NCBI GenBank assembly: GCA_019637105.1
Contig: JAHBWF010000001.1
Coordinates: 62,001-126,000 of the forward strand
Direction: 5' to 3'
Source: Labilithrix sp.
GTDB taxonomy: Bacteria; Myxococcota_A; Polyangia; Polyangiales; Polyangiaceae
DNA: 64,000 bases
The notes beneath the pieces are model-generated. The model ran no database searches. It was not told where the DNA came from and was given only the letters and a program-made list of their open reading frames with translations. Below, in pieces: positions 1,872 through 64,000 of the stretch. How positions within the stretch are numbered: position 1 is the stretch's first letter; each line of letters begins with the position of its first letter. A program made the translations under genes and the position numbers.

Positions 1872-4800
1872 TCATGTTCGGCCGTCCTTCCCGAAGGCGG
1901 CATAGACGACCGGCAGGACGAACAAGGTGAGCAGCGTGGCGGTGATCAGGCCGCCGATCACGACGGTCGCGAGCGGTCGCTGGACCTCGCTGCCGGGCGC
2001 CGTCGAGAGCGCCATGGGCACGAAGCCCAGCGCGGCCACGAGCGCGGTCATCAGCACGGGCCGGAGGCGGCGCTCCGCGGCCGAGCGGATGGCCTCGACG
2101 TGCGTAAGCCCGTCCTCCTCGAGGTGGCGGGCGAAGGAGACGAGCACGAGCCCGTTGAGGACGGCGACGCCGAAGAGGGCGATGAATCCCACCCCCGCCG
2201 AGATGGAGAAGGGGAGGCTCCTGATCCAGAGCGCGAGGACGCCTCCCACGACGGCGAAGGGGACGTTGAGGAAGATGAGGAGCCCGCTCCGCGTCGAGCG
2301 GAAGGCGAGCCAGAGGAGGAACAGGATGAGCGCGAACGCGAGCGGGACGACGATCGCGAGGCGCGATCTCGCCTCGGTGTAGTGCTCGAACTGCCCGCCC
2401 CACTCGGCGCGATAGCCCGTCGGGAGCGCCACCTCCTCCGCGACCGCGGCGCGCGCGTCCTCCACGACCGACAGGACGTCCCTGCCGCGGACGTTGAACT
2501 CCACCGTCAACCTGCGCGACTGGCTCTCGCGGCTGACCTGGGCGGGCCCCTCGGCGAAGGTCAGCTCGGCGACGTCGCCGAGCGGGACGACCTGACCGCT
2601 CACCGAACGGAGCGGAAGCATCCGGAGCGGCTCCGGATCGCCGGCGAAGTCGTGCCGCGTCTTCACGACGATCCCGAAGCGCCGCTCGCCTTCGAGGACC
2701 TCGCCCGCGCCGTAGCCGACCGCCATGGTCTCGGTGATCTGGTTGATGTCCTCGATGGTGAGCCCGTAGCGCGCGAGCCTCGCGCGATCCGGGACGACGC
2801 GGAGGTACTTGAGCCCCGCCACCTGCTCGGCGCGCACGTCGACCGCGCCGGGGATCGCGCGGACGGCGCCGGCGACGCGATCGCCCAGCGCGCGGAGCTC
2901 GTCGAGGTCGGGGCCGTAGAGGAGGACGGCCACGTCGGAGCGGACGCCGGCGACGAGCTCGTTGGTGCGCATCTGGATCGGCTGCGAGACGGCGCCCGCG
3001 ATCTCGGGCACGGCCTCCTCCGCGACCTCGGCGATCTCCTTCGCGAGCTCGTCCTTGGTGAGGTCCTTGCGCCACTCGCGCCGATCCTTGAGCCCGACGT
3101 AGACGTCGGACTGCTCCATCCCCATGGGATCCGTCGCGACCTCCGGGGCGCCCGTCCGGCTCACGACGTGGCTCACCTCGGGGACGGCGGAGAGCGCCTT
3201 CTCGAGGCGGAGCGCGGTGGCCACCGACTCGTCGAGCGCGATCCCCGGGAGGCGTCGGGCTTCGACGAGCGCGTCCCCCTCGTCGAGCTGCGGGACGAAC
3301 TCGGCGCCGATGCGCGTGAAGAGCGCGGCCGCCCCCGCGAGATAGAGGGCGCCCGCGCCGAGCGTGAGCCAGCGGCGCGACATCACCTTGTCGAGGAGCG
3401 GCGCGTAGGCGGCGTGGATCTTTCGCAAGAGCCACGTCTCCCGCTCCGACGCCTTCGGCTCCACGACGTAGCTGGTGAGCACCGGGACGACCGTCAGCGA
3501 GAGGATGAACGCGCCGGCGAGCGCGAGCAGCACGGTCGTCGCCATCGGGCGGAACAACTTCCCCTCGACGCCGGTGAGCGCCAGGATCGGGACGTAGACG
3601 ATCGCGATGACGGCCTCGCCGAAGACGCTCGCGCGGCGCACCTCGAGCGTCGCCCGCTCGACCGTCTCCGTCCGCTCCTCGGCGGTGAGGAGGCGGCCCA
3701 GCCGAGCGCGTCGCTCGGAGAGCCGGCGGGCGGCGTTCTCGACGATGATGACGGCGCCGTCGACGATGAGCCCGAAGTCGAGCGCGCCCAGGCTCATCAG
3801 GTTGCCCGAGAGCCCGAGCGCGCTCATCACGGTGACCGCGAAGAGCATCGCCAGCGGGATGACCGCGGCGACGACGAGGCCCGCGCGGAGGTCTCCCAGG
3901 AGGACGAAGAGCACGGCGATCACGAGGAGCGCGCCTTCGAGGAGGTTCGTCCCGACGGTCTCGATGGTGCGGTCGACCAGGACCGACCGGTCGTAGAACG
4001 GCTCGATGGTGGTGCCGGGCGGGAGCGAGGGCTGGATCGCCGCGAGCTTCGCCTTGACGGCCTCCGTGACGGTGCGCGAGTTCTCCCCCAGCAGCATCAT
4101 GGCGACGCCGATGACGACCTCGCCGTCGCCGTTCATGGTCGCCGCGCCTCGTCGGAGCCGAGGTCCGAGCTGCACCTCACCGACCGTGGAGAGCGTGATC
4201 GGGACGCCCTCCGGCGTCGCGCCGATCACGATCCGCCGCAGGTCGTCGACGTCCTTGACCAGGCCGTCCGTCCCGATGACGAGCTGCTCGCGGTTGTGCT
4301 GGACGTACCCGCCGCCGGCGTTTCGGTTCGATTTCTCGAGGGCGTCGATGACCTGGGCGACCGAGACGCCGGCGGCCTGCAGGAGCTTGGGATCGAGGAC
4401 GACCTGGTACTGTCGCTCCTCCCCGCCGAAGCTGTTGACCTCGACGACGCCGGGCACGGCGCGGAGCTGCGGGGCGATCTGCCAGTCGAGGATCTCCTCG
4501 CGCTGCATCAGCGAGAGCCGTTCGTTGTGGACCACGAACTGGTAGATCTCACCGAGCCCGGAGGTGATCGGTCCCATCTCGGGCTTGCCGTACTTCGCGG
4601 GGACGGCGCCCTCGACCTCGCGCATGCGCTCGCCGACGAGCTGGCGGGCGAAGTAGATGTCGGTCTCGTCGGTGAAGACGACGGTCACCACCGAGAGCCC
4701 GTACTTGGAGATCGACCGGATCTGCGTCGAACGCGGCACGCCCGCCATCGCGCGCTCGACCGGCACCGTCACGTACTTCTCGACCTCGACGGGCGACAGC

Positions 4801-47960: not shown

Positions 47961-49878
47961 ATGAACAGCGTTTCCCGCCCGGCGGCCGACGGCCTCGCGG
48001 CGATCGATCTCTCGCGCGCGCTCGGCGGTCCGGGCGCGCGGCCCCTCGAGCCGGGCCGAGCCGCCTTCGACGCCGCGCTCGCGCGCGTGCAGGGAGGCGC
48101 GGACCCCGAGCTCGAGGTCGAGGTGTCGGCCGAGACCGAGGACGCGGAGGAGGCGGAGCGATCCGCGCCGCCGGCCGTCGCGTCGCCGGCGGCGTTCGTG
48201 CCTCCGCCGGTCCTCGGCGCGTCGCCGTGCCGGCGTTCGAGGCCGATCCGGCGGCGGTCGCATCGCGCGTCGCGCCGAAGGGGCGCGCGGGCGGCGAGGG
48301 GGCCGTGGGGTCGCGGGCGGACGCGGTCGGGTTCGGGGAGGCGAGCGGGTTCGCGGGCGGGGAGGGGGTTGTCCGCGGGAGGGGGCCGGGTTCGCGAGGG
48401 CGATGGGCCTTTGCGGGCGGGGGAGGTGAGGGGGAGCGCGGACGCGGCGGGCCTCGCGGGCGGGGTGCCGTCGGCGTCGCCGCAGGCCTCCCCGTCGAGG
48501 TCGGCTGACGACGTGCGGGCGGCCGTGGGCCGAGGCCGCCGTACCGCCGAGGGCGCGGCGACGGCGCGGACACGCGCACCGCCGAGGCGTTACCCAAGCG
48601 ACGTCGTCTGGCGCGAAGCCTCCGACGAGGGACGCCGCGCGCGACGCGCCGGCGCAAGGCGTACTCCGATGCCGGCGCGGCCGCGACGCTGGCGGCGATC
48701 CCCTGCGAGCGCCGACGCGCGCGGCGACGGCGGGAGATCCCCTGCGGCGCCGGCGCGGCCGCGTCGTTGGCGGGCGATCCCGCGAGCGTGGTCGCGCCCG
48801 CGGTCGGTCGCCGATGCCAGGAGCGCCGGCGCGCCCGCGGTGCGTCGCCCGTCGCCGGCGCCGCGAGCGCGCCTGCGGCGCCGCTCTCTCGCCGCCCACG
48901 CGAGCGCCGCCGCCCGTTCCGTCGATCCCGCGGCGGCGTCACGCTCGGCCGGCGCGCCGCGCTGCATCCCGCGCGACGCGGCAATGATGGCAGAGGCCGC
49001 CCATGCCATACGCCTGCCGCGAGATACGCGACGCGCCCGGTGACGTCTCCTCGGCGCGCGACGCCCCTCGCGGCGCCCGGCGCGCCTCGGTGCTGGCGCC
49101 GTCGCGGAGACGGCTCCCCTGCCGACGCCGGTGGCCGAGCGCGGATGCCGCGCCCGTCCCCACCGCCGCGCGCCGCGGCCCCTGGCCACGGAGAGCATCG
49201 CCCGCCGGTCCGGTCGAAGCGAGCGTCGGCGAGCGCACGGCGGCGTTCGCCGATCGTCTCTCGGGCGGCGACGCGGACGCCCGCTCGGGCGGCGACGCGG
49301 ACGTCCTCTTCGGCGCCTCGGACGCCGCCGCGCCGTTCGCGAACGGCGACGCCTCGGCGGCCCTCGCCGCGCCGCCGGGCGTCGGCGCGTCGTCGGAGGC
49401 CGTCAGGACGATGGCGCCCGTCACGGTTCCGTCGCCCGCCGCCGGCGCGGCGAGGGCCGCCGAGGGCCGCGAGGCCGGCGTCCGCGCGGCCGAGGTCGCC
49501 GGTCACCGGCGCGCGCTCGCCGGCGAGGCCCACGGGCGGATCGTGGTCCCGGAGCTCGGCAACGTCGAGGTCCGAGCGATCGCCGACGCCGCGAAGATCG
49601 ACGTTCACGTCCGCGCGGACGACGAGCGCGCCACGCGCGTGATCGCCGCCCACGCCCCCGAGCTCTCGGCGCACGTGCAGCGCGAGGTCCCCGAGGCGCG
49701 GGTCTTCGTGGAGCGTCCCGCCGGCGGCGACGCGACGGCGCGCGATCTCGGGGGCGACCACGGCGAGAGCCGCCGCGGAGCGCGCGAAGAGCGCGGCGAC
49801 GGCGACCGCGCGTCGCGGGTCGGCGTCGAAGGACCGTCGGTCCGACGTCAAAGAGCGCGGGTCCGGATCGTGCTTTGA
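47961..49878 (+). pseudogene. fliK: Hook-length control protein FliK, frameshifted
   Basis: The start is clear: AAGGAG before ATG 47961 and MNSVSRPAADGLAAIDLSRA, then a clean frame to about 48230. Coding character then switches frame (FEADPAAVASRVAP from 48227, ending at a TGA near 48508) and is scrambled in 48500-49100. Traces such as SDAGAAATLAAIP and GAGAAASLAGDPASVVA appear in it. A clean third frame resumes before about 49220 and runs to 49878 with a FliK C-terminal domain (HGRIVVPELGNVEVRAIADA, KIDVHVRADDERATRVIAAH, APELSAHVQREVPEARVF). It follows fliJ and precedes flgD, the expected place. Either a real pseudogene or indel errors in a repetitive linker. Confidence 0.65.
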
Positions 49879-49886
49879 GGATCGAC

Positions 49887-50564
49887 ATGGCGCTCTCCTC
49901 CGTCACGTCCGCCGCGGGCACCAACACGCCGACGACCTCCGAGCCGACGGAGAAGTCGGCGCTCGACAAGGACGCCTTCCTCAAGCTCCTCGTCGCGCAG
50001 CTCTCCCACCAGGACCCGCTCCAGCCGACCGAGGGCACCGAGTTCGTGGCCCAGCTCTCGCAGTTCGCGATGGTCGAGCAGTCGATCGCGCAGTCGGCGA
50101 AGCTCGACGTCCTCTCGGCGCAGATGACGGGCCTCGCGAGCAACGAGGCCGCCGGGCTCGTCGGCAAGGACGTCACCGTCCGCGGCAACGGCATCGCGTT
50201 CGACGGCGTCACCGCGACGGGCTCGAGCGTCAACCTCGACGCCGCGGCCGCGAAGGTCACCGTCCGCATCCAGGACGCGTCCGGCAAGACGGTGCGCACC
50301 CTCGAGCTCGGCCCGCGCGGCGCGGGCGCGGTGCCCATCACGTGGGACGGCAAGGACGACGCCGGCCAGCCGGTCGCGAAGGGCACCTACGCGATCAAGG
50401 TCGACGCGCAGACGGCCGACGGCAAGTCGGTGAACACGTCTCAGGACGTGAGCGGCAAGGTCACGAAGGTGTCGTTCGAAAAAGGTTACCCGGAGCTCCT
50501 TCTCGACTCCGGTGTCACGGCTCCAATCTCGGAGCTCGTGAGCGTAGGAGGAACGGTTCGATGA
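49887..50564 (+). CDS. flgD: Hook scaffolding (capping) protein FlgD
   Basis: The 225-residue hook cap has the N-terminal FlgD signature KDAFLKLLVAQLSHQDPLQP, then EFVAQLSQFAMVEQSIAQS. The central Ig-like domain contains FlgD-type TVRTLELGPRGAGAVPITWD, GKDDAGQPVAKGTYAIKV. Normal length. The frame is clean throughout, in contrast to the neighbouring fliK and fliL-M. Its stop overlaps flgE (ATGA). Confidence 0.95.
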   Translation: MALSSVTSAAGTNTPTTSEPTEKSALDKDAFLKLLVAQLSHQDPLQPTEGTEFVAQLSQFAMVEQSIAQSAKLDVLSAQMTGLASNEAAGLVGKDVTVRGNGIAFDGVTATGSSVNLDAAAAKVTVRIQDASGKTVRTLELGPRGAGAVPITWDGKDDAGQPVAKGTYAIKVDAQTADGKSVNTSQDVSGKVTKVSFEKGYPELLLDSGVTAPISELVSVGGTVR

Positions 50565-51850
50565 GCATTACGAAGGCCATGTACTCGGGCGTCTCTGGAC
50601 TCACCGCCGAGAGCAACACGCTCAGCATCGTGGGTGAGAACATCGCCAACACGAACACCATCGGCTTCAAGCGCACGCGCGCGACGTTCGAGAACGTCCT
50701 CGGCGGCGCGATCGGCTCGCCCGACAACGTCGGCGGCGGCGTCCGACTCGGCCGCGCCCAGCAGATCTTCGCCCAGGGCGCGCTCGTCAACACCGGGCAG
50801 GCCACGGACGTCGCGCTCTCCGGCGACGGCTTCTTCGTCGTCAACGGCACGATCAACGGCGTCTCCGGCAACTTCTACACGCGCGCCGGCCAGCTCACGA
50901 TCCGCAACGACGGCGTCCTGGTCAACCCGCAGGGGATGGAGGTGCAGGGGTACGCGCCGAACGCGAGCGGCGGCTTCGACTCGCGCGTCGGGCGCCTCCA
51001 GCTCTCGACGGCGCAGCTCCCGCCGAAGCCGACGTCGTCGATCCGCGCCACGGCGAACCTCGACGCCTCGGCGACGCCGCCGACGGTCGCGTGGGACCCG
51101 CAGAACCCGGGCGCCTCGTCGAACCTCTCCACCACGATGACGGTCTACGACTCGCTCGGCAAGGCGCACGCGGTCGACCTCTACTTCACGAAGACCGGCG
51201 ACGGCACGTGGGACGTCCACGCCCTCGCGAAGGGCGACGAAGTGAACGGCGGCACGCCGGGAGAGAACTTCGAGTTCGCCACCGGCCAGCTCACGTTCGA
51301 CTCGGCCGGCGCGCTCCAGGACGTCCAGTGGAACCCGGCGGGGCAGATCAGCTTCAACGGCGCGACGCCGAACCAGGCGATCGACTTCGATTTCGGCACG
51401 TCGATCGCCGCGGGCGGGACGGGCCTCGGCGGGACGACCCAGTTCGGCTCGGCGAGCGCGGTCAGCGCGCAGTCGCAGGACGGCTACGGCTCGGGTGACC
51501 TCGCCGGCGTGAAGATCGACTCCGACGGCACCGTCAGCGGCGTCTACTCCAACGGTCAGACCGTGGCGGCGGGCAAGATGGCCGTCGCCAAGTTCCGCTC
51601 GAACGACGGCCTCGGCCGCGCGGGTCAGAACATGTGGGTCGCCACGCGTGAGTCGGGCGAAGCGGCCGTCGGCGCCGCCGGCGAGGGCGGTCGAGGCGCG
51701 ATGGTCGCCGGCTCGCTCGAGCAGTCGAACGTGGACATCGCCGAGCAGTTCGTGGGCCTCATCGCGCACCAGCGCGCCTTCCAGGCGAACAGCAAGACGA
51801 TCACGACGGCCGACCAGATGCTCCAGGAGATGATGGCCCTGAAGCAGTGA
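50561..51850 (+). CDS. flgE: Flagellar hook protein FlgE
   Basis: The 429-residue hook subunit has the N-terminus MYSGVSGLTAESNTLSIVGE with NIANTNTIGFKRTRATFENV. The central domain is beta-rich (STTMTVYDSLGKAHAVDLYF). The C-terminus SNVDIAEQFVGLIAHQRAFQ with ANSKTITTADQMLQEMM is diagnostic. AGGAGG precedes ATG 50561. Normal length and intact. It is the last clean gene before the broken fliL-fliM block. Confidence 0.96.
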   Translation: MSITKAMYSGVSGLTAESNTLSIVGENIANTNTIGFKRTRATFENVLGGAIGSPDNVGGGVRLGRAQQIFAQGALVNTGQATDVALSGDGFFVVNGTINGVSGNFYTRAGQLTIRNDGVLVNPQGMEVQGYAPNASGGFDSRVGRLQLSTAQLPPKPTSSIRATANLDASATPPTVAWDPQNPGASSNLSTTMTVYDSLGKAHAVDLYFTKTGDGTWDVHALAKGDEVNGGTPGENFEFATGQLTFDSAGALQDVQWNPAGQISFNGATPNQAIDFDFGTSIAAGGTGLGGTTQFGSASAVSAQSQDGYGSGDLAGVKIDSDGTVSGVYSNGQTVAAGKMAVAKFRSNDGLGRAGQNMWVATRESGEAAVGAAGEGGRGAMVAGSLEQSNVDIAEQFVGLIAHQRAFQANSKTITTADQMLQEMMALKQ

Positions 51851-51891
51851 CGTAGTCCGGCCGTTGGAGGAGACGAAGCGAAGAGCCCGCC

Positions 51892-52401
51892 ATGAGCACC
51901 GAGTCCAAGCCGAACACGCCCGCGCCGGACGCACCGGCCGGGGTCCCGACGAAGCCGTCGCCGATCGGCGGGCTCTTTCGCATCTTCCCGCGAACCGCAG
52001 TTACGCCGTGGGCGTTGCCTACGGTGGTACCGTGCGTCCGCGGCGCATCAGCGGCTGGCGCCCTGAGCACGCTCTGCGTACGTGCCGCTCAGAGCAAGCC
52101 TCCGGGGCCGACCCCCCGCTCGAGCTGCTCCTCATGACGCTCTTCGACGCGAGCAAGAAACCCCACCCGATGAAGATAAAATGACGCCGTCGAGTTCGAT
52201 CCGCACACGACCGAGGACCTCAAGAACTTGGTGCCCCTGCAGTGACGCCGTGCTCACGTACCTCCGCAGCGCTCACCCATTGAGGCAGGTCGTCGATCCC
52301 GGCACATTGGTATGATGCGCGCCGAGCCGACTGAGCGTTACGCCGCGGGCGAACAACGCCGAGCGGATCCTCCTTCGTCACGGACTTTCGTCGTCCAATG
52401 A
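51892..52401 (+). pseudogene. fliL: FliL remnant, frameshifted
   Basis: The start is MSTESKPNTPAPDAPAGVPT with KPSPIGGLF, a typical FliL cytoplasmic N-terminus. The frame is lost before any TM helix. Further on, fragments in different frames spell FliL: VEFDPHTTEDLKNLVPL (about 52190-52240), DAVLTYLRSA (about 52245-52275), VVDPGTL, and at the end the pieces TDF and VVQ, as in the usual FliL C-terminus. The stop TGA (52399-52401) overlaps the fliM ATG as ATGA. The total span is a multiple of three (170 codons), so net length is preserved despite several indels. FliL normally supports the stator. Confidence 0.6.
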
Positions 52402-53249
52402 GCGCGCGACTCGAGGCCTCGCCGTTCTTTGCGGATCGTAGTGGTCGCGCCGCGTCGGCTCGCGTCGCCGAGGTCGCGTCGGCGCTCGCCGGCGCGCCCT
52501 GGCGTGCCGTCCCGTTCGCGCCGCCGCGTGGCGGTCGACGCGAAGCCCGTGCGTTGCGTCGCGCTCGCCGGGATCTGGCCGGCGACGGCGGTCGCCCACG
52601 CCTCGGCGCGTTCGCCCGTCCGCGCGGCCCCGGCGCCTCGCCGAGCTGCCGCCGCGATGCGCGGGCCTGTCTCGCTCGACGACGTCGCGCTCGCCCGCAT
52701 CCTCGACGGCGTGCTCGGCGGCGACGGTCGCCCTCGAGGTCCGCGTGCCCTCGACCTCGGCGCAGAGCGCGCTCGCGTCGCGCGTCACCGGCAGCATGCT
52801 GCGCGCGTTCGGAGACGTGCTCACGTCGCGCCTCTCGCTCGCGATCGAGCCCACGACCTCGAAGGACGTCGAGGCCGGCGCGGCCGTCGTCCTGCCGCTG
52901 GCGATGGAGGGCGGCGGCGCCGTCCTGCTCGCCCTCCCGCTCTCCGCGGTCGCGCGGGACGAGGAGGCCGCGGAGCCGCAGCAGGTCGACAGCGGCATCG
53001 CCGCGGCCATGACCGACGCTGCTTCCGACGCAGCACGTCGCCGAGCTCGGCAAGGTCCGCCTCCCGCTCGAGGCGATCGCCCGGCTCGCGGTCGGCGACG
53101 CGTCATCTCGTCTCGCTGCCGCTCGACGAGCGCGCGCGCATCTGCGCGGGCGGGGCGACGCTCTTCCACGGCCGGCCGACCGCGAGCGGTCACGTAATGT
53201 TGTCGCGATCGAGCGCCCGGCGAACGAGCTCTCTCCGGCGCGCCCTTGA
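52398..53249 (+). pseudogene. fliM: FliM-like C-ring (SpoA-domain) protein, frameshifted
   Basis: From ATG 52398 the translation MSARLEASPFFADRSGRAAS runs about 45 codons, then the frame changes several times. Recognisable pieces are LTSRLSLAIEPTTSKDVEAG with AAVVLPLAMEGGGAVLLALP (about 52820-52950), HVAELGKVRLPLEAIARLAV (about 53035-53095), and PLDERARICAGGATLFHGRP with TASGHV (about 53115-53195). The last two are the SpoA/FliMN C-terminal domain, LG.V.LP......L..GD and L......I...G...GR. The end IERPANELSPARP stops at 53247-53249. The length, about 284 codons, is short for FliM. Its N-terminal FliG/CheY-binding motifs cannot be recognised. Confidence 0.6.
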
Positions 53250-53263
53250 GCCTCCGTCGCCGA

Positions 53264-54276
53264 TCACGGCGCGGCGTCGCGCGGAGCAAGCCCCCACAGG
53301 TCCGCCACGATCCTTCGAACGAGCGTTTGCGCGCGTCGTGGTCGAAGACGTCAGACCACCATCAGCTCGTCGGTCTGGTCTTCTCGGCAGCGCTCGAGGC
53401 CGGCGCGGACGGCCCTCGTGAGCCGACGATGGAGTGGGGCGAGCATGCTCGACGCTGCGGCCTCGGCGGGCGTCCAGCAGGCGTCGATGTCGTCAGGACG
53501 GCGGCTTCTGGAGGCTGCGCGTTCCGCGATGCAGGTCGGTGAACGCTTGCTGCAGTGTCGTGAAGAGGCGTCGTGCCCGTCAGTCCGTCTCGGCCGGGTG
53601 ACGACGTTCACGTCGGCCATCGCGTGTACGGTCGTCGAGCCAGTCGTGAGGGCCTGAACGCGCCGGTACGTGGCGAAAGGCGCTCTCGAGTGCCGCGGGC
53701 GCTGAAGTGGAGGCGAACGCAGCACAAGCCCTGGAACGCGGCAGCCTCCGCGCCGAACAGGCCGGTTTGAGATCCGTGAGCGGCACGCGGAGCCCGCCGC
53801 CCGGTACGGCCTGGACGCGCTGACCCGCGGACGGGCGCGAACAGCGCCTTGAGCTCCTGGACGTCGCGCGGAACTCCTCGGACGCCCGCGGATCAGCGCC
53901 GCATCGCGCGCACCGTCAAGGGGACGGTGCGCCCGGCGCGCGGCCGGTTCGGCGGTTTCCAGATAAAACCGGTAGAGCGACTCATGAGCTGTGCCAAACT
54001 GCTCGGCGATCTGCAGCGGCGAGTGGTTCGGCGCAGCATGATCCCGCTGGCCCCGACGCGAATGGTTCTGTCTGCCGGCGGCAGAAAGCTCGATCACCAC
54101 CGACGTCGCGGCGCTCGCGATGCCCGCCATGTTGTGATGCTCGGCGACCCAGTAGCGCGCGTGTACCCGAGGGCTTCGGCGTGCCCGCGAGCTCTCTCCG
54201 AGGTTGCACCTGAGCGCTTGCCTCGGCGTGGAGCCCTGGACGACGGGGACGAGGTCGAGGACCGACAGGGAATCAT
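53264..54276 (-). pseudogene. Luciferase-like (LLM class) flavin-dependent monooxygenase, frameshifted
   Basis: On the minus strand, from ATG 54276, the family pattern is unmistakable but split over frames: SVLDLVPVVQGSTPRQALR, GHAEALGYTR, YWVAEHHNMAGIASAATSVV, TIRVGASGIML, PNHSPLQIAEQFGT, VQELKALFAPV, MADVNVVT, DDIDACWTPAEAAASSMLA, VRAGLERCRE, TDELMVV, then DVFDHDARKRSFE and IVADLWGLAPRDAA ending at 53264. The 1013-base span equals a normal LLM gene of about 337 residues. Members oxidise small substrates with FMNH2 and O2. It lies antisense between fliM (14-base gap) and fliN, an odd place. Indels dominate over substitutions except around 53870-53990, so recent decay or consensus errors are both possible. 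Confidence 0.7.
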
Positions 54277-54559
54277 ATGCCTTACACCGTACTGGCGGAC
54301 GCCGGCCTTCCTGATGTCGCTCGGCGGTGCGGTTGCGCGGGCATCCCCGCTGGCGCGAGCGTCGGTCGCGGCTCCGGCGGTCCTCGCTGGCGCGGGGCGC
54401 GTGACACGTTCTGGACGCTCGTACGCGGCACGGCCCTTGAAACAGGGCAGGTTTGTCCACACACCCGACGGACGGAACGCTCCCGCTTCACGTACCCTCT
54501 GGGCTCCTTGCGCGATGCTGATATCGAGAGGCGCTTCGAGATTCGGCGCGGATAGATCG
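54277..54559. other. Unresolved stretch, probable fliN 5' part and LLM promoter
   Basis: This stretch lies between the LLM start and the recognisable fliN C-terminus. The size would fit the first half of fliN on the plus strand, but no frame gives a coherent FliN N-terminus. The sequence near the LLM start (54268-54290) is locally AT-richer (aatcatatgccttac) and could hold its ribosome site. I cannot assign it further. Confidence 0.35.
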
Positions 54560-54790
54560 TGCGATCTCCGCCTCTGCACCGGCAGACGCGCTCGAGCTCG
54601 ACAAGGCGGCGGGTGAGCCCCTCGAGATCGTCGTCAACGGTCGGCTCATCGGACGGCGAAGCGGTCGTCCTCGGCGATCGCTACGGGGCTGGTGGATCAC
54701 GGAGATCGTCACGTCGCCGGCCGAGCACGACGGCGCGAAGGTGTCGCCGGAGCCGGCCGCGCCGGTCCGGCGCCGGCGGAGCCGCAGTGA
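54560..54790 (+). pseudogene. fliN: FliN C-terminal remnant, frameshifted
   Basis: Three consecutive pieces in three frames spell a SpoA/FliN C-terminus: DALELDKAAGEPLEIVVNGR with LIG (54585-54650), then GEAVVLGDRYG (54655-54690), then ITEIVTSPAEHDGAKVSPEP (54694-54757). A final frame ends PAPAEPQ at a TGA (54788-54790) that overlaps the fliO GTG start as GTGA. So the gene boundary is intact while the body has indels roughly every 40-100 bases. FliN forms the lower C-ring with FliM. Confidence 0.6.
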
Positions 54791-55575
54791 AGGCCCTCCG
54801 CGCAGGCGCGTGTCATCGCCTGACGCTCGTCGCCGTCCCGACGCTCGCGCTCGCCGCCGAGCCCCCGGCGCCGGCGGCCGCGCCGGCGGCCTCCGCCGCT
54901 ACCCTGGCGGCCCCGCGGCCCGGCGGCGGCCTCCGCGGCGCGCCTCCGGTCGAGGTCGCGGCCCTGCCCGAGACGCCCGCCCCCGCCGCGACGCCGCTCG
55001 CGACGCGTCCGAGCAAGCCGCTCACGTTGGCGAGCCCGAACGAGGGGACGCCGTTCGCCTACAAGCTCTTCGCCGGCGTCGGCGTGGCGGCCGCCGCGGG
55101 CCTCTGGCTGAAGAAGAAGCGGAGAGGCCACGCGCCCACGACGGCGAGCCGGATCGACGTCCTCGGCCGGACGTCGGTGGGCGTGCGCAGCGAGCTGATC
55201 GTCGTCGAGGTGGAGGGCACGCGCCTGCTCGTCGGGATGACGCCGAGCGCGATCCAGACCTTGGCGGTGCTCGACGCCGTCGACGCGCCCGCCGTCGAGG
55301 CGTCGGCGCCGCTCGAGCTCCCCGCGCGCGAGCGCGCGCCGATCGCCCGGGCGGAGGAGCGCCCGCTGCTGGAGATGGCCGATCGCGCGCGCAGCCTGCT
55401 CGGCGGCGTCGGGGCGCCCGCGAAGGCGGCGGCGCCGAAGCGCGCCCCCGCCCCGAAGACGGCGAAGCTGCCGCGCGTCGCCGGTCAAGCGAAGGGCCTG
55501 CTCCTCGCGCTCGAGCAGCCGGACGACGCCCGCAAGGGCCCGCCGGACCGATCGCTCCGCCTGGGGGACGGGTGA
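54787..55575 (+). CDS. fliO: Flagellar export-gate assembly protein FliO
   Basis: The 262-residue protein starts at GTG 54787. A short signal-like segment (RLTLVAVPTLALAA) and an Ala/Pro linker are followed by a TM helix (about 97-113, AYKLFAGVGVAAAAGLWL). A basic stretch and the FliO cytoplasmic domain come next (SRIDVLGRTSVGVRSELIVV, EVEGTRLLVGMTPSAIQTL). The C-terminal 80 residues are an Ala/Lys/Pro tail. FliO helps assemble the FliP ring. From here to flhB all frames are clean. Its stop overlaps fliP. Confidence 0.85.
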   Translation: MKALRAGACHRLTLVAVPTLALAAEPPAPAAAPAASAATLAAPRPGGGLRGAPPVEVAALPETPAPAATPLATRPSKPLTLASPNEGTPFAYKLFAGVGVAAAAGLWLKKKRRGHAPTTASRIDVLGRTSVGVRSELIVVEVEGTRLLVGMTPSAIQTLAVLDAVDAPAVEASAPLELPARERAPIARAEERPLLEMADRARSLLGGVGAPAKAAAPKRAPAPKTAKLPRVAGQAKGLLLALEQPDDARKGPPDRSLRLGDG

Positions 55576-56324
55576 AGCCGGCGCGCGTCGGCGCTACGGC
55601 CGCGGCGCTCCTCCTGGGGCTCGTCGCGTCGACCGACGCGCTGGGCGCGCCGGCGGCGCCGCCGGACCTCCTCTCCGTGGCGACCACGGGCCCGGGGCTC
55701 GCGCCTCAGCTCAAGATCCTCGCGCTCCTCACGCTGCTCTCGCTCCTGCCGGCGATCGTCCTGACGATGACGTCGTTCACGCGGATCGTCGTCGTCCTCT
55801 CCTTCGTCAAGCAAGGGGTCGGCGCGCAGCAGTCGCCGCCGAGCCAGGTGCTCGTCGGCCTGGCGCTCTTCCTCACGATGTTCACCATGGCCCCCGTCAC
55901 CAACACGGTCCTCACGGAGGCCTACGATCCCTACGCGGCGGGCAAGATCGACGAGTCGGCGGCGCTCGAGCGCGCGGCCGCGCCGCTCCGCTCGTTCATG
56001 CTCCGCCAGACGCGCGAGGCCGATCTCGCGCTCTTCTACGAGGCGTCGCGCACCCCGCTGCCGTCGACGGAGGAGGAGGTCCCGATGCGGATCGCCTCGC
56101 CGGCCTTCGTCGTGAGCGAGCTCACGACCGCGTTCCAGATGGGCGTGCTCGTGCTCTTGCCGTTCTTGGTCATCGACCTCGCCGTCGCGGCCATCCTGAT
56201 GGCGATGGGCATGATGATGGTGCCGCCCGCGTCGATCAGCCTGCCGCTGAAGCTCCTTTTGTTCGTCGTGGTCGACGGCTGGCACCTGCTCGTCGGCTCT
56301 CTCCTCCGGAGCTTCTCCACGTGA
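55572..56324 (+). CDS. fliP: Flagellar export-gate protein FliP
   Basis: The 250-residue polytopic protein starts at GTG 55572 with a signal sequence. TM helices carry the FliP signatures: LLTLLSLLPAIVLTMTSFTR, IVVVLSFVKQGVGAQQSPPS, VLVGLALFLTMFTMAPV. Near the C-terminus PFLVIDLAVAAILMAMGMMM with VPPASISLPLKLLLFVVVDG is highly conserved. The periplasmic loop (EAYDPYAAGKIDESAALERA) is typical. Core pore ring of the export gate. Confidence 0.96.
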   Translation: MKPARVGATAAALLLGLVASTDALGAPAAPPDLLSVATTGPGLAPQLKILALLTLLSLLPAIVLTMTSFTRIVVVLSFVKQGVGAQQSPPSQVLVGLALFLTMFTMAPVTNTVLTEAYDPYAAGKIDESAALERAAAPLRSFMLRQTREADLALFYEASRTPLPSTEEEVPMRIASPAFVVSELTTAFQMGVLVLLPFLVIDLAVAAILMAMGMMMVPPASISLPLKLLLFVVVDGWHLLVGSLLRSFST

Positions 56325-56590
56325 ACGGCGACCAGGCGCTCGCGATGGTGCTCGAGGCCCTGCGGGTCACGCTGTGGATCTCCGGGCCGATCCTCGCCGT
56401 CGCGCTGATCGCGGGCCTGCTCGTCGGCGTCGCGCAGACGGTGCTGCAGATCAACGAGGCGAGCGTCAGCTTCGTGGTGAAGCTCGTCGCGCTCGTCGGC
56501 GTCCTCGTCGTGCTCGGCCCGACGCTCGCGAGCAAGGTGATGGACTACACGCGCGGCTCGCTCCAGGCGATCGAGCACGTCGTCCGGTGA
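56321..56590 (+). CDS. fliQ: Flagellar export-gate protein FliQ
   Basis: The 89-residue protein starts at GTG and has two TM helices joined by a short turn: ALRVTLWISGPILAVALIAG, LLVGVAQTVLQINEASVSFV, VKLVALVGVLVVLGPTLASK. The QTVLQINE and SFVVKLV motifs are diagnostic (normally Q..TQI.E.T..F.PK). Four-base overlaps with both fliP and fliR. Confidence 0.95.
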   Translation: MNGDQALAMVLEALRVTLWISGPILAVALIAGLLVGVAQTVLQINEASVSFVVKLVALVGVLVVLGPTLASKVMDYTRGSLQAIEHVVR

Positions 56591-57366
56591 CGTCGCTCCC
56601 CGCGTTCGCCCTCGCCGAGGCGGCGGCCTTCGTGCTCGCGGCGACGCGCGTGGCGGGCTTCGTGGTCGCTTCGCCGTTCCCCGGGCGCAACGTCCCGAAC
56701 CAGGCGAAGATCGGCCTCGTCCTGATGCTCGCGTGGATCGCGCGGGCGGCGCAGCCGGCGACGCCGGACCTCGGCCTCGATCTCGCGCTCTTCGGCCTCG
56801 TCCCCGGCGAGCTCGGGATCGGCCTCGTCATCGGCTTCACGGTGCGCGTGACGTTCTCGGCGGCCGAGGTGCTCGGCGCGAGCTTCGCCCAGGCCACCGG
56901 CCTCACGTTCGGGCAGGTCTACGATCCGACGCTGGGCGGCGAGGACTCGGTGCCTTCGCGCGTCGTCACGCTCTTCTCGATGCTGCTCTTCCTCGGGCTC
57001 GGGGCCCACCGGGTCGCGCTCGCCTACGCGCTCGAGTCGTTCCGCGCGCTGCCGCTCGGCCACGCCGTCGCGATCGGCGCGGCCGCGCCGTCGATGGTGG
57101 ACTTCCTCGGGCAGGCGATGGACGCCGGCGTCCGGCTCGCGGTGCCCGTCATGGCGATCGCGCTCGCGGTGCAGATGGCGCTCGCGCTCGTCGCGCGCGC
57201 GTCGCCGTCGCTGCAGGTGTTCAGCGTCGGCATGGGGGTGACGGTCGCCGCCGGGCTCCTCGCGATCCTCGGCACGATCGACGACGCCGCCGTCGGGCTC
57301 GCCGGGGAGCTCGAGCGCGAGGGTCCGAGGATCGAAGAGGTCGTCTCCGACGTGGCCGCCCCATGA
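56587..57366 (+). CDS. fliR: Flagellar export-gate protein FliR
   Basis: The 259-residue protein starts at GTG 56587. It has about six TM helices and the FliR patterns ATRVAGFVVASPFPGRNVPN, QAKIGLVLMLAWI, GELGIGLVIGFTVRVTFSAA and EVLGASFAQATGLTFGQVYD with P, plus a C-terminal amphipathic end. Normal length. It forms the top of the export-gate spiral with FliP and FliQ. It overlaps flhB by four bases. Confidence 0.95.
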   Translation: MTSLPAFALAEAAAFVLAATRVAGFVVASPFPGRNVPNQAKIGLVLMLAWIARAAQPATPDLGLDLALFGLVPGELGIGLVIGFTVRVTFSAAEVLGASFAQATGLTFGQVYDPTLGGEDSVPSRVVTLFSMLLFLGLGAHRVALAYALESFRALPLGHAVAIGAAAPSMVDFLGQAMDAGVRLAVPVMAIALAVQMALALVARASPSLQVFSVGMGVTVAAGLLAILGTIDDAAVGLAGELEREGPRIEEVVSDVAAP

Positions 57367-58436
57367 GCGCGGACAACGGCGACAGGACCTACGACCCGAC
57401 GGACCAGCGCCGGGAGGAGTTCCGCAAGCAGGGCCGCTTCGCGAAGGCGCGCGACGCGGGCGGGGTCGTCGCGACGGCCGCGGTGATCGCCGTCCTCGCC
57501 GGATCGCAGGAGCGCCTCGCGGACGCCTCCCGCCGTCTGATGGCGGGCACGCTCGGAGACCTCGGCGCGCTCGAGCGCCTGGGCCCGGCCTCCGTCCTCT
57601 CGTCGGCCGGGGGCGAGCTCCTCGCGCTCGCCGGCGCCGCGGTGCTGGCGGCCGTCACGGCGTCGACGGCGCTGGGCGCCGCGCAGGCGGGCTTCCGCTC
57701 GTACGGCGAGCTCTTGACCCCGGATCTCTCGCGCCTCGATCCGTCGAAGGGGCTCGAGCGCTTCTTCTCGCCGAAGCGCGCCGGCCTCGAGACGCTGGTC
57801 GCGGTCGCGCGCGTCGCGGCGGTCGCGGCGGTCGCCTGGCACGCGCTCTCGAAGGAGCTCCCGCTCTTGACCGCGCTCGCGCGGATGCCGCTCCAGGGCA
57901 GCGTCCCGGTGATGCTCGCCGCGATCGCGCGCATGGTCGGCATGGTGACGGGGGTGCTCGTGCTCGTCGCCGCGATCGACTACGCGCAGAGCCGCTACAC
58001 GATCTCGCGCGACATGAAGATGACCCGCAAGGAGCGGGAGGACGAGTCGAAGCAGTCCGACGGAGACCCGAAGGCGAAGGCGCGGATGAAGTCGCGGGCG
58101 AGGGCGCTCGCGAAGAAGCGCGCGATGAACGCGGTGAAGAACGCCGACGTCGTCGTGACCAACCCGACCCACGTCGCCGTCGCGCTCCGCTACGGCCCGA
58201 AGGACGCCGCGCCCGTCGTGATCGCCAAGGGCCACGACGAGGTCGCGCTCCGGATCCGCGCCGAGGCGCGCAAGCACGGCGTCCCGATCCTCGAGAACCG
58301 TCGCCTCGCGCGCGCCCTCGACGCCGAGGTCGCGATCGGCCGCCCCGTCCCGGCCGCCCACTTCGCCGCCGTCGCCCGCGTCCTCGCGTTCGTCTACCGC
58401 CTGCGCGGCGCGCGCGGCCGCGGCGCTCGTCGTTGA
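57363..58436 (+). CDS. flhB: Flagellar export switch protein FlhB
   Basis: The 357-residue protein has four TM helices in the first 210 residues and a basic linker (ISRDMKMTRKEREDESKQSD, GDPKAKARMKSRARALAKKR). The cytoplasmic domain carries the autocleavage motif NPTH at 267-270 (VVVTNPTHVAVALRYG). It switches export from rod/hook to filament proteins. The N-terminus DPTDQRREEFRKQGRFAKAR is also conserved. Last gene of the operon; flhA is not adjacent, which is unusual. Confidence 0.96.
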   Translation: MSADNGDRTYDPTDQRREEFRKQGRFAKARDAGGVVATAAVIAVLAGSQERLADASRRLMAGTLGDLGALERLGPASVLSSAGGELLALAGAAVLAAVTASTALGAAQAGFRSYGELLTPDLSRLDPSKGLERFFSPKRAGLETLVAVARVAAVAAVAWHALSKELPLLTALARMPLQGSVPVMLAAIARMVGMVTGVLVLVAAIDYAQSRYTISRDMKMTRKEREDESKQSDGDPKAKARMKSRARALAKKRAMNAVKNADVVVTNPTHVAVALRYGPKDAAPVVIAKGHDEVALRIRAEARKHGVPILENRRLARALDAEVAIGRPVPAAHFAAVARVLAFVYRLRGARGRGARR

Positions 58437-60343: not shown

Positions 60344-61633
60344 TCACGGGTCTCCGGCTCCTCGAGGAGGAGGCGAGGGCTCGCGCGGGCCGGCGTCGCC
60401 GGGAGGGCGAACGCGGCGGAAGAGGCGGTAGAGCGCGAGGTCGTAGGCGATCTTGAGAGCGCCCGCGACGACGAACGGCGCGCCGCTCATGCCCATCAGC
60501 CCCGCCGCGAACGGCCCGAGGCTCGAGCCGACGAGCTTCGCCTGGTTCGCGAGCGCGCTGGCGGCGGAGCGCTCGTCGTCGTCGACGATCGCCATCATGT
60601 AGCTCGTGCGCGCCGGCACATCCATCTGCGCGACGAGGAACCTGCCGAGCAGCGCCGCGACGCTCGTCTCGAGGGTCGGCATGAACGGGAACGCGATGAG
60701 GAGCATGTTCCCCGGCACGTGCGTCCACACCATCGTGTTGACGAGGCCGAAGCGCCGGGCGATGGGCGCGCTCAGGAGCGACGAGAACCCGGCGACGACG
60801 TTGGTGGCGAAGAAGACGCCGCCGAGGACGCCGACGTCGGCGCCGAAGCGGCGGTGGAGCCAATAGGCGAGGAGCGTCTGCACGGCGAGGCCCGAGCCGA
60901 AGGAGTCGAGCGTGAAGAGCGCGGCGAGCGTCGTGACCGCGCGCCGTGAGCGGTGGAGCCCCCCGCGGGCGCGCGCGCGCCCCGCCGGCTCGACGCCGGG
61001 CGAGAGGCGGAGGAAGAGGGCGGCCATGACCACGCCGAGGGCGGCGTAGAGCAGGATCACGGCGCGGTAGGCGTCGACGTCGGCGTGGCCGCGCGTCGTG
61101 ATCCGCTGCGCGATCCACCCGCCCGTGAGCGCGCCGGTCGCGCTCGAGAGCGATCCGGCGAGCTGGTAGTAGCCGAAGGCCCGCGTGCGATCGCGCCCGT
61201 CGACCTGTTGGCTGATCGCCGCTTGCTCGATCGACAAGAACGGGCCGACCTCCGCTCCGCTCGGGCTGATCGTCCCGATCACGGCCGCGAGCGTGAGGAC
61301 GATCGCGCTCTCCGTGGTGACGAAGACGACGCCCGCGACGACGACGAGCACGCAGCTCGCGACGAGGACGCGCCGGCGCCCCATGCGATCGGCCACCCCG
61401 GCGATGCCGAGGCTCAAGACCGCGTCGCCCACGAGCGTCAACGTGAAGATCAGCCCGATGTGCTCGTCGGAGAAGCCCCGGGCGGCGAGGTAGAGCGCGA
61501 GGATGACCGCGAGGAGCCCGTACGCGAAGGTGCGCACCGCGCGCGTCGCGAAGAGGATGCGGGCGTCGGGGGTGAGCGTCATGAAGTCCGGGAGCCCGTC
61601 TCTGCGCGGCGCTCGTCGCGTGATCGCCGTCAC
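60344..61633 (-). CDS. MFS transporter
   Basis: The 429-residue protein has 12 predicted TM helices. MFS motif A appears between TM2 and TM3 as GIAGVADRMGRRRVLV, and the start of TM1 is RTFAYGLLAVILALYLAARG. Middle features are EVGPFLSIEQAAISQQVDGR with RTRAFGYYQLAGSLSSATGA, a pattern seen in drug/sugar efflux-type MFS. Substrate unknown. It diverges from the SDR gene with a 131-base gap; no regulator is adjacent. Confidence 0.85.
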   Translation of the reverse strand: MTAITRRAPRRDGLPDFMTLTPDARILFATRAVRTFAYGLLAVILALYLAARGFSDEHIGLIFTLTLVGDAVLSLGIAGVADRMGRRRVLVASCVLVVVAGVVFVTTESAIVLTLAAVIGTISPSGAEVGPFLSIEQAAISQQVDGRDRTRAFGYYQLAGSLSSATGALTGGWIAQRITTRGHADVDAYRAVILLYAALGVVMAALFLRLSPGVEPAGRARARGGLHRSRRAVTTLAALFTLDSFGSGLAVQTLLAYWLHRRFGADVGVLGGVFFATNVVAGFSSLLSAPIARRFGLVNTMVWTHVPGNMLLIAFPFMPTLETSVAALLGRFLVAQMDVPARTSYMMAIVDDDERSAASALANQAKLVGSSLGPFAAGLMGMSGAPFVVAGALKIAYDLALYRLFRRVRPPGDAGPREPSPPPRGAGDP

Positions 61634-61764
61634 GCGGCTCAGGGCGCGCGGGGGAGGAGAGGAGATGAAGCGGAGCGGGGCCGCACGTCAAGCGCGGCCG
61701 GAGCGCGCCGCCGTCCGGACGTCGTCCGGCGCCCCTTGACGGGCACCGCCGTCCGGGCAAATCG

Positions 61765-62655
61765 GTGAGCGTGCGACGCGTTCTCGTGACCGGGGCGAAC
61801 AAGGGGATCGGGCTCGCGATCGCGGAGGCGATCCTGCGGGAGCACGCGGACACGTTCGTCTACCTCGGCTCTCGCGATCCCGAGCGCGGCCGCGCGGCGG
61901 CGGCGACGCTCGCGCGCGCCGACGCGACGTGGCGAGCGCGCGTCGAGGTCGTCGAGCTCGACGTGTCCGACGATCGCTCCGTCGCGGCGGCCGAGGCGCG
62001 GATCGCCGCGAGCCGCGGCGAGGACGGGCTCTACGGCGTCGTCAACAACGCCGGGATCGGCTCCGGCGCGGGCGCGGACCTCGCGACCGTCTTCGAGGTC
62101 AACACGCTCGGCGTCCGTCGCGTCTGCGAGACGTTCCTGCGGTCGATCGATCCGCGGGAGGGGCGGATCGTCAACGTGACGTCGGCGTCCGGGCCGAGCT
62201 TCGTCGCCACGTGCAGCGCCGAGCGGCGGAGGTTCTTCCTCGACGACCGCATGACCTGGGACACGCTCCGCGCGTTCATCGACGAGTGCGTCGCGATCGA
62301 CGGCGACGAGGCCGCGTTCGCCGCGCGAGGGCTGGGGGACGGCTCCGCCTACGGTCTCTCGAAGGCGTGCGCCAACACGTACACGATGCTCTTCGCTCGC
62401 GAGCACCCGAACCTGCGCGTGAACGCGTGCACTCCGGGGTTCATCGCCACGGACATGACGCGCCACTACGCGGAGTCGGAAGGCAAGTCGCCCGCGGAGC
62501 TCGGGATGAAGCCGCCCTCCGAAGGAGCGAGGGCGCCGATGTTCCTCCTGTTCGGTTCTCCCGAGGGCAACGGGCGCTTCTACGGGAGCGACGCGAAGCG
62601 CAGCCCGCTCGATCGCTACCGGGCGCCGGGCAGCCCTCCGTACACCGGCGCCTGA
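61765..62655 (+). CDS. Short-chain dehydrogenase/reductase, carbonyl-reductase-like
   Basis: The 296-residue NAD(P)H-dependent oxidoreductase has dinucleotide motif TGANKGIG (9-16), NNAG (94-97), catalytic Ser140 (NVTSASG) and YGLSK with Tyr196 and Lys200. An insertion of about 40 residues between Ser and Tyr (CSAERRRFFLDDRMTWDTLR) is like eukaryotic-type carbonyl reductases (CBR1), which have a long loop there. The C-terminus (PEGNGRFYGSDAKRSPLDRY) is also CBR-like. Start GTG 61765. Substrate unknown, probably a ketone or quinone. Confidence 0.88.
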   Translation: MSVRRVLVTGANKGIGLAIAEAILREHADTFVYLGSRDPERGRAAAATLARADATWRARVEVVELDVSDDRSVAAAEARIAASRGEDGLYGVVNNAGIGSGAGADLATVFEVNTLGVRRVCETFLRSIDPREGRIVNVTSASGPSFVATCSAERRRFFLDDRMTWDTLRAFIDECVAIDGDEAAFAARGLGDGSAYGLSKACANTYTMLFAREHPNLRVNACTPGFIATDMTRHYAESEGKSPAELGMKPPSEGARAPMFLLFGSPEGNGRFYGSDAKRSPLDRYRAPGSPPYTGA

Positions 62656-62725
62656 GCGGCCGCCCGCGCGCGGGCGGCCCGAGCGTCGCCGCGCGGAGAG
62701 AGCGCGCGAGCGACGGCGGCGTGGA

Positions 62726-63199
62726 TCAGGGCGCGGTCACCATGTTGAAGCCGCCGAGGACGCAGAGCGGCGTCCGCTCCTGGAGCGCGTAGGCGTCGAG
62801 CCGGTACGTGGTGCCCGAGACCTTCTCGCCGGCCTTGACGACGGTCTCGGCCTGGACGCGCTCGACCATCTTCTCGCTGGGGAGCGCGTCGCTGCCGGCC
62901 GGACCCTTCGCGAGCCGCACGGCGTAGTGCGTCGTCTCGGCCGGCGCGCCGCTCAGCGTGAACTCGACGTCGTTCGCGGAGACGCCCGGCGTGATCCGAC
63001 CGCACGCCTCCAGCGCGACCGGCATCGCGATCCCGTCGATCACGTCGAGCGTGTCGGATCCGCCGGAGCTCGACGCGGAGCCGCTCGCGCCGCCGGAGCT
63101 CGAAGAGGAGCCGCTCGAGTCGTCTTCGCCGCTGCAGGCCGTCGAGGCGCAGACGATCGAGGCGGCGACGAGGAGCGAGCGAAGGCGAGCGAAGGGCAT
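62726..63199 (-). CDS. Predicted lipoprotein, unknown function
   Basis: The 157-residue product has a lipobox ASTAC (Cys22). A very low-complexity Ser/Gly linker (about 27-48, runs of S and G) and a domain of about 105 residues follow, with GIAMPVALEACGRITPGVSA, VEFTLSGAPAETTHYAVRLA, VQAETVVKAGEKVSGTTYRL and a final LCVLGGFNMVTAP. Two further Cys could pair. I do not recognise a family. It is convergent with the SDR gene and upstream of it is the M15 peptidase gene on the same strand. Confidence 0.6.
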   Translation of the reverse strand: MPFARLRSLLVAASIVCASTACSGEDDSSGSSSSSGGASGSASSSGGSDTLDVIDGIAMPVALEACGRITPGVSANDVEFTLSGAPAETTHYAVRLAKGPAGSDALPSEKMVERVQAETVVKAGEKVSGTTYRLDAYALQERTPLCVLGGFNMVTAP

Positions 63200-63255
63200 G
63201 GCGAACCGAGCCTACCGAGGCGGCGCGCCGCGTCTCCTGCATGAACATGCGATGC

Positions 63256-63318
63256 GCGCTCGCCGACGAGAGCTCGCGCTCGCCGACGAGAGCTCGCGCT
63301 CGCCGACGGGAGCTCGCG
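63256..63318. repeat. Three tandem 20-bp repeats
   Basis: The unit CGCCGACGAGAGCTCGCGCT occurs at 63261-63280 and 63281-63300. A third copy with two changes lies at 63301-63320, preceded by a partial GCGCT. The array fills the space between the start of the lipoprotein gene and the stop codon of the M15 peptidase. It is GC-rich and contains GAGCTC palindromes. It could be a slippage-prone spacer or a binding site; no gene is encoded. Confidence 0.85.
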
Positions 63319-64000
63319 TCAGGGGACGACGCAGTTCTTCCCGATGTACGGGCTCGGATCCTCTCCGCACGCGACGCGGCCGTCGGTCCGCTCCGCGCAG
63401 TCGACGCGGCGGTAGGCGCCGCTCGCGCACCACTCGAGCACGCTGCCCGTGCAGCGGCCCTCGAAGGGCACCGCGCTGCAGTCGGGCGCCGCGGGAGCGC
63501 CGCCTCCTCCGCTCGCGCCGGCGTCCGGCCCGGCGCTCGCGGGCTCCGAGGCGTCCTCGGGCTCGTCCGAGAGCTCGAGCGACTCGCGCTCGCTCGCCGA
63601 GAGGCTCGCGACGAACACGGGCACCGCGAGGCGGAGGCCGCCGGCGAGCCGAGCTTCGCGCGCCTTGAGCTCGGCCGCGGCGCGTACCCCGATGTACCGG
63701 TAGTGCCACGGCTCGTGGACGTAGCCGTCGTTGTGCCGTCGATCGGCGTTGGGGTACGAGCACGCGAAGCCGTGCTCGTGCGCGTGCGCGCGCAGCCACA
63801 GGTCCGCGGCTCCGCCCGCCGCGATGAACGAGCTGCCGGCGCCCGCGAGGGCCACGTCGCAGACCGTGCCGAGCTGGTGCTCCGAGTGCCCGGCGTTCGC
63901 CGCGTACGTGTTGGCCGCCTCGCATCCGTCGCGGTCGGCGTAGCTCCGGAAGAGCGCGCACTGCGTCTGGAAGGAGCGATACCCGGAGAGGCACGCGAGG
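63319..64000 (-). CDS. M15/VanY-family D-alanyl-D-alanine carboxypeptidase-like protein (partial)
   Basis: The 5' end is outside the window; about 227 codons remain. The visible domain begins LACLSGYRSFQTQCALFRSY and carries the M15 zinc motif GHSEHQLGTVCDVAL (His and Asp ligands). The second motif is HEPWHYRYIG, with catalytic Glu and ligand His. These enzymes trim peptidoglycan stem peptides in the periplasm. The C-terminal extension of about 110 residues is an acidic/Pro/Gly linker and a small Cys-rich module (CSAVPFEGRCTGSVLEWCAS, DCAERTDGRVACG), suggesting secretion and perhaps substrate or surface binding. ATG 63855 begins inside the domain and is not the real start. Confidence 0.85.
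   Translation of the reverse strand, partial: LACLSGYRSFQTQCALFRSYADRDGCEAANTYAANAGHSEHQLGTVCDVALAGAGSSFIAAGGAADLWLRAHAHEHGFACSYPNADRRHNDGYVHEPWHYRYIGVRAAAELKAREARLAGGLRLAVPVFVASLSASERESLELSDEPEDASEPASAGPDAGASGGGGAPAAPDCSAVPFEGRCTGSVLEWCASGAYRRVDCAERTDGRVACGEDPSPYIGKNCVVP

What the first reader, a model, noticed from the sequence alone, without database searches (positions are those of the whole stretch)
51892..54790. C-ring genes fliL, fliM and fliN all broken by indels while their gene boundaries stay intact
fliL, fliM and fliN can each be reassembled from pieces in different frames, for example DAVLTYLRSA in fliL, LGKVRLPLEA and FHGRPTASGH in fliM, and DALELDKAAGEPLEI in fliN. The coupling junctions survive: ATGA between fliL and fliM, GTGA between fliN and fliO. 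The spans of fliL and fliM remain multiples of three. flgE before and fliO-flhB after are clean. If real, the flagellar switch has been lost very recently in a cell keeping fliG, fliF, the stator and export genes. If not, this is a local block of consensus errors. Either answer matters for interpreting motility.
Basis: partly seen in the sequence, partly recalled or inferred. Interest (0 to 1): 0.72.

Follow-up and report, generated by a model that had tools for sequence, protein, structure and literature searches.

The report
Assembly artefact in flagellar switch genes
The broken flagellar motor genes are a patch of badly assembled sequence, because the same draft genome holds intact copies of fliM and fliN on a small separate contig that fits that very spot; the finding is ordinary and says nothing about loss of motility.

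Summary
Window 52.0-54.83 kb is scrambled by substitutions and indels. fliM and fliN are not neighbours there: an antisense luciferase-like monooxygenase gene lies between them and is scrambled too. The same genome carries a 4,395-bp contig, C231, that matches window 52,153-54,831 and holds open fliM, monooxygenase, a PAS histidine kinase and fliN, plus the 3' part of fliL. Over fliL-3'/fliM the window and C231 share exact runs of 262, 79 and 65 bp; the other ~670 bp hold 94 substitutions and 51 indel events. Decay does not make that mosaic; error-rich gap-fill can. Twenty of 38 relatives keep an adjacent FliM/FliN pair without stops in the matched stretches. Best explanation: the true contig stayed unplaced and the gap was filled with error-rich sequence, probably uncorrected long reads, possibly of a sister strain, since the kinase gene is missing from the fill. 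Unresolved: the intact 5' half of fliL was not found, and no raw reads were available.

The parts
51892..52401 (+). fliL: first ~100 bases clean, rest scrambled (error-rich stretch begins about 51,990)
   Evidence: G004 FliL aligns at 40% with 3 TGA and 1 TAA inside (39%); left edge from the alignment; intact 3' part (81 codons) on C231:3-245
52398..53230 (+). fliM, scrambled, with three patches identical to the intact copy (52,757-53,018; 53,036-53,100; 53,111-53,189); 3' end approximate
   Evidence: intact copy C231:245-1084, 279 aa, FliMN_C E 8.5e-15
53270..54276 (-). luciferase-like monooxygenase gene lying between fliM and fliN, scrambled
   Evidence: tblastn 40%, two frames; intact in C231:1157-2161 (Bac_luciferase E 2.4e-40) and matched at 92% and 89% in G004 and G003
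54481..54790 (+). fliN, scrambled; start not recognisable, so the first coordinate is approximate
   Evidence: intact copy C231:4022-4357, FliMN_C E 3.7e-25
51990..54830 (.). whole error-rich stretch, read as a gap-fill; right edge coincides with the end of contig C231, left edge lies about 160 bases before its start
54787..55575 (+). fliO; its first ~40 bases are touched by the error-rich stretch
   Evidence: Pfam FliO E 8.5e-12, alignment

Best explanation
The stretch is an assembly artefact. A true 4.4-kb contig (C231) with intact fliM, a monooxygenase gene, a PAS histidine kinase gene and fliN was left unplaced. The gap that it should fill in contig C1 was closed with error-rich sequence, most likely uncorrected or barely corrected long-read sequence with a few corrected patches, possibly from a sister strain without the kinase gene. 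Shown: the intact copy, its fit to the gap, the patchwork of perfect and scrambled stretches. Inferred: the sequencing technology, the gap-filling step and the sister-strain origin. The organism most likely has intact fliM and fliN.
For: Intact fliM (90% to G004), fliN (95%) and the 3' part of fliL (93%) on C231 of the same genome. C231 aligns to window 52,153-54,831 in the same order, in two pieces with 102 gap openings. Exact runs of 262, 79 and 65 bp between scrambled parts; in 20,000 simulations of evenly spread differences at the same rate the longest run was 92. Within fliM, window-C231 substitutions fall evenly on codon positions 1/2/3 (20/21/22), whereas C231-G004 differences lie mainly at position 3 (19/6/51); over fliL-3'/fliM there are 51 indel events against 3. 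At four-fold sites C231 is about as far from G004 (fliM 22.9%, fliN 23.6%, fliL-3' 9.1% on 44 sites) as the clean neighbouring genes of C1 are (flgE 19.1%, fliP 17.9%, flhB 21.5%, fliQ 10.2% on 59 sites), so nothing marks C231 as foreign. An unrelated antisense gene is scrambled too. 20 of 38 relatives have an adjacent FliM-FliN pair without stops in the matched stretches.
Against: C231 holds a histidine kinase gene that the window stretch lacks, so the two are not the same haplotype throughout. In the monooxygenase part the window is no nearer to C231 than to G004 (809 v 813 matches; diagnostic sites 47 v 36). In fliN the window-C231 substitutions are not even over codon positions (19/7/23), as they are in fliM. 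Indel events are hardly concentrated in homopolymers (8 of 51, 8 of 57 and 3 of 21 against C231 in fliL-3'/fliM, monooxygenase and fliN, where 13-16% of the reference is homopolymer), so a plain Nanopore homopolymer signature is absent. The error-rich stretch begins about 160 bases before C231 does. No raw reads were seen, and the intact 5' half of fliL was not found.
Confidence: 0.95

Rival explanations
1. Real, recent loss of the flagellar switch by accumulated mutations, with C231 contributed by a second strain in the bin.
For: The genome is a draft (91.5% complete, 2.08% contamination) and C231 differs in gene content from the window stretch. In fliN the substitutions lean to codon positions 1 and 3 (19/7/23).
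Against: Three exact runs (406 of 1,078 bases) lie next to parts with about 15% substitutions plus 51 indel events; steady decay does not give that. In 8 of the 14 bins of 52,001-54,800 substitution against G004 is 24-35%, above the four-fold divergence of clean genes (10-21.5%); this argument is weaker than the first, because the other aligner counts fewer substitutions and more gaps (13-16% in the monooxygenase gene and fliN). An antisense gene of unrelated function is damaged too.
Confidence: 0.03
2. A sub-version of the best explanation: the filler is error-rich sequence of a sister strain without the kinase gene, so that C1 is a chimera of strains here. (Its confidence is contained in that of the best explanation, not added to it.)
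For: The kinase gene is absent from the window stretch and from the G004 stretch, and C231 holds the only match in the genome at E<=1e-60; in the monooxygenase part the window is equally near to C231 and G004.
Against: In fliM the clean patches equal C231 exactly, and diagnostic sites in fliL-3'/fliM favour C231 59 to 24.
Confidence: 0.35
3. The scrambled stretch is a second, decayed copy of the C-ring genes, and C231 is the working copy placed elsewhere in the genome.
For: Two copies exist in the assembly.
Against: The scrambled copy sits in the order shared with G004 (flgE, fliL, fliM, monooxygenase, fliN, fliO, fliP); C231 begins inside fliL and ends inside fliO, so it has the same neighbours and no flanks of its own.
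Confidence: 0.02

Closest known systems
Gene-fragmenting errors in long-read assemblies (PMC12007338; abstract and outline seen)
   Same: Frames broken by sequence errors that look like pseudogenes.
   Different: Here the errors are packed into one 2.8-kb block and are substitutions as well as indels, as in an unpolished fill.
Flagellar gene order fliL-fliM-fliN-fliO of Myxococcota relatives
   Same: Order and domain content of the intact copies.
   Different: In this genome and its two nearest relatives a monooxygenase gene (and on C231 a histidine kinase gene) separates fliM from fliN.

Membership tests
FliM/FliN (FliMN_C, PF01052) | FliMN_C domain over the curated cut-off in an open frame | tested here: met
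   Met on C231: fliM 54.9 bits, fliN 88.1 bits, cut-off 23.8. In the window none of the 9 frames tried from the block matches.
Recent pseudogene | No intact copy with the same neighbours in the same genome | tested here: not met
   Intact fliM and fliN on C231 between the 3' part of fliL and the start of fliO
Recent pseudogene | Differences spread along the gene without long exact patches | tested here: not met
   Exact runs of 262, 79 and 65 bp between scrambled parts; simulated maximum 92
Assembly consensus error / bad gap-fill | Damage ignores gene function, strand and codon position | tested here: inconclusive
   Antisense monooxygenase gene broken too; substitutions even over codon positions in fliM (20/21/22) but not in fliN (19/7/23)
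Assembly consensus error / bad gap-fill | An accurate copy of the same stretch exists elsewhere in the assembly | tested here: met
   C231, except the 5' half of fliL
Assembly consensus error / bad gap-fill | Raw reads contradict the consensus | not testable with these tools
   No reads available

The most novel reading that the evidence does not exclude
A co-existing sister strain without the kinase gene has a truly degenerate C-ring stretch, and the assembler mixed the two haplotypes, so that the population holds both a switch-intact and a switch-less form.
Probability: 0.02. Interest if true: 0.45.

Novelty: not a real feature. Interest (0 to 1): 0.06.

Why it matters
It removes a false claim of lost motility in this organism, and gives a simple check for similar cases: look for a small unplaced contig of the same genome that fits a scrambled stretch of a large one.

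Tried and rejected
Searching the own genome with Pfam FliM (PF02154) found nothing, but this was uninformative: the relative's intact FliM matches only PF01052. The frame-contrast scan of C1 flags the block, but also many other stretches of C1 and of G004, fliK of the relative among them, so it was not used as proof. In one search the fliR row was taken in the wrong frame and is dropped. Diagnostic sites gave no clear strain origin for the monooxygenase part. The alignment of fliK was started at a place chosen by eye, so its first bins are rough. One literature search for such artefacts (10 papers listed) and one for a likely source study (8 listed) were made; one paper was opened (abstract and outline only), and the source study was not identified. 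Linking G004 to 'Labilithrix sp. isolate ACE_MYX5' (JAHBWA010000001.1) and G003 to 'Myxococcales bacterium 68-20' (MKVQ01000004.1) rests on equal contig lengths.

Full report
What is there. The window lies in contig C1 (positions 62,001-126,000) of an 8.45-Mb, 334-contig draft genome. The nearest named relatives found with its FliP are MAGs called Labilithrix sp. and Myxococcales bacterium 68-20 (96% each). The flagellar genes run flgE, fliL, fliM, fliN, fliO, fliP, fliQ, fliR, flhB (names of fliP-flhB from my reading of the frames). Against the nearest relative, G004, 200-base bins differ by 2.5-8% with no indel in 50,001-51,800 (9 bins), and by 4.5-13% with no indel in 55,601-58,400 (14 bins). 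The 14 bins of 52,001-54,800 hold 59 indel events and 6.5-35.2% substitutions; only the bin 52,801-53,000 is clean. The bins between (51,801-52,000: 1 event; 54,801-55,600: 9 events in 4 bins) and three bins before 50,001 (2 events, 10.5-15%) were not counted as flank.

Corrections to the observation. In G004 the order is fliL (170 aa), fliM (279 aa), an antisense luciferase-like monooxygenase, fliN (111 aa), fliO. The window has the same order, and the monooxygenase is scrambled as well (40% by tblastn; two frames). Two junctions survive (ATGA at 52,398-52,401; GTGA at 54,787-54,790), but the fliM stop and the fliN start are not recognisable.

The intact copy. Searching the same genome with G004's FliM and FliN gives matches over 278 of 279 and 111 of 111 residues without stops on contig C231 (90%, E 4.2e-148; 95%, E 9.0e-62); FliL gives its last 81 residues there (93%). 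C231 is 4,395 bases long. It begins inside fliL and ends inside fliO, and carries fliM, the monooxygenase (334 aa), a PAS histidine kinase (501 aa) and fliN. It corresponds to window 52,153-54,831; the scrambled stretch begins about 160 bases earlier and ends within a few bases of C231's end.

Why it is not decay. Over fliL-3' and fliM (1,078 window bases) the window and C231 share exact runs of 262, 79 and 65 bases; the rest carries 94 substitutions and 51 indel events, 46 of them not multiples of three. Evenly spread differences at that rate never gave a run above 92 in 20,000 simulations. Within fliM the substitutions are even over codon positions (20, 21, 22), while C231-G004 differences in fliM are 19, 6, 51; over the whole stretch C231 and G004 differ by 3 indel events. 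In fliN the window-C231 substitutions are less even (19, 7, 23), with 21 indel events in 306 bases; the monooxygenase part has 57 indel events in 986 bases. At four-fold sites C231 is 22.9% (fliM), 23.6% (fliN) and 9.1% (fliL-3', 44 sites) from G004, close to the clean genes of C1 (flgE 19.1%, fliP 17.9%, flhB 21.5%, fliQ 10.2% on 59 sites), so nothing marks C231 as foreign. Among 50 G004 open frames with coding-like composition in 69 kb (antisense and overlapping frames included), 42 match C1. Five of the 42 are flagged as split over frames: two are fliM and the monooxygenase, and three lie in 60.4-63.4 kb, where an alignment finds 0-3 indel events per 200 bases. fliL and fliN are damaged but were not flagged, as each gave one low-identity match (39%, 61%).

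Relatives. Of 38 relatives searched with FliMN_C, 20 hold two matches within 5 kb of each other on one contig, taken as the FliM-FliN pair, with no stop in the matched stretches; 13 have one match and 5 have none (counted by me from its table). In 17 of the 20 the two matches start within 0.55 kb of each other; the exceptions are G003, G004 and G006. The third match in G000 (C324, 463-aa frame) lies on a contig of its own and may be the type III secretion counterpart (inference, not tested).

What is left open. The histidine kinase is on C231 (the only match at E<=1e-60 in the genome) and was not found in the window or in the G004 stretch. In the monooxygenase part the window is equally near to C231 and G004 (809 and 813 matches). 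The filler may therefore come from a sister strain. Indels are hardly concentrated at homopolymers (8 of 51, 8 of 57, 3 of 21). The sequencing technology and the filling step are inferred; no reads were available. An intact 5' half of fliL was not found in the assembly. Whether the remaining flagellar genes are complete was not checked.

Verdict. Not a real biological feature: an error-rich stretch in C1 beside its true, unplaced counterpart C231. That sequence errors can mimic pseudogenes in long-read assemblies is described (PMC12007338, abstract and outline).

Noticed in passing
window 53270-54276; L114 (C231) 1157-2161; L013 7342-8340; L014 8006-8986: A luciferase-like monooxygenase gene lies antisense between fliM and fliN in this genome and in its two nearest relatives (G004, G003). 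In 17 of the 20 relatives with a FliM-FliN pair the two matches start within 0.55 kb; G006 has about 2 kb between them, but no monooxygenase match in its stretch.
   Followed up: partly
L114 (C231) 2390-3895: A PAS histidine kinase gene sits between the monooxygenase and fliN on C231; tblastn at E<=1e-4 did not find it in the window, in the G004 stretch or in the G003 stretch, which has about 3 kb of other sequence there.
   Followed up: partly
window 47961-49880 (fliK): The two conserved ends of FliK lie in different frames, with 33-47% substitution against G004 in the bins of 48,141-49,340: either a second error-rich stretch, or fast evolution plus a frameshift. No second copy was found in the genome at E<=0.01.
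   Followed up: partly
window 60371-63412: Three overlapping G004 open frames match here in two frames each, but few indels are seen; probably ordinary indels or frames that are no genes.
   Followed up: partly
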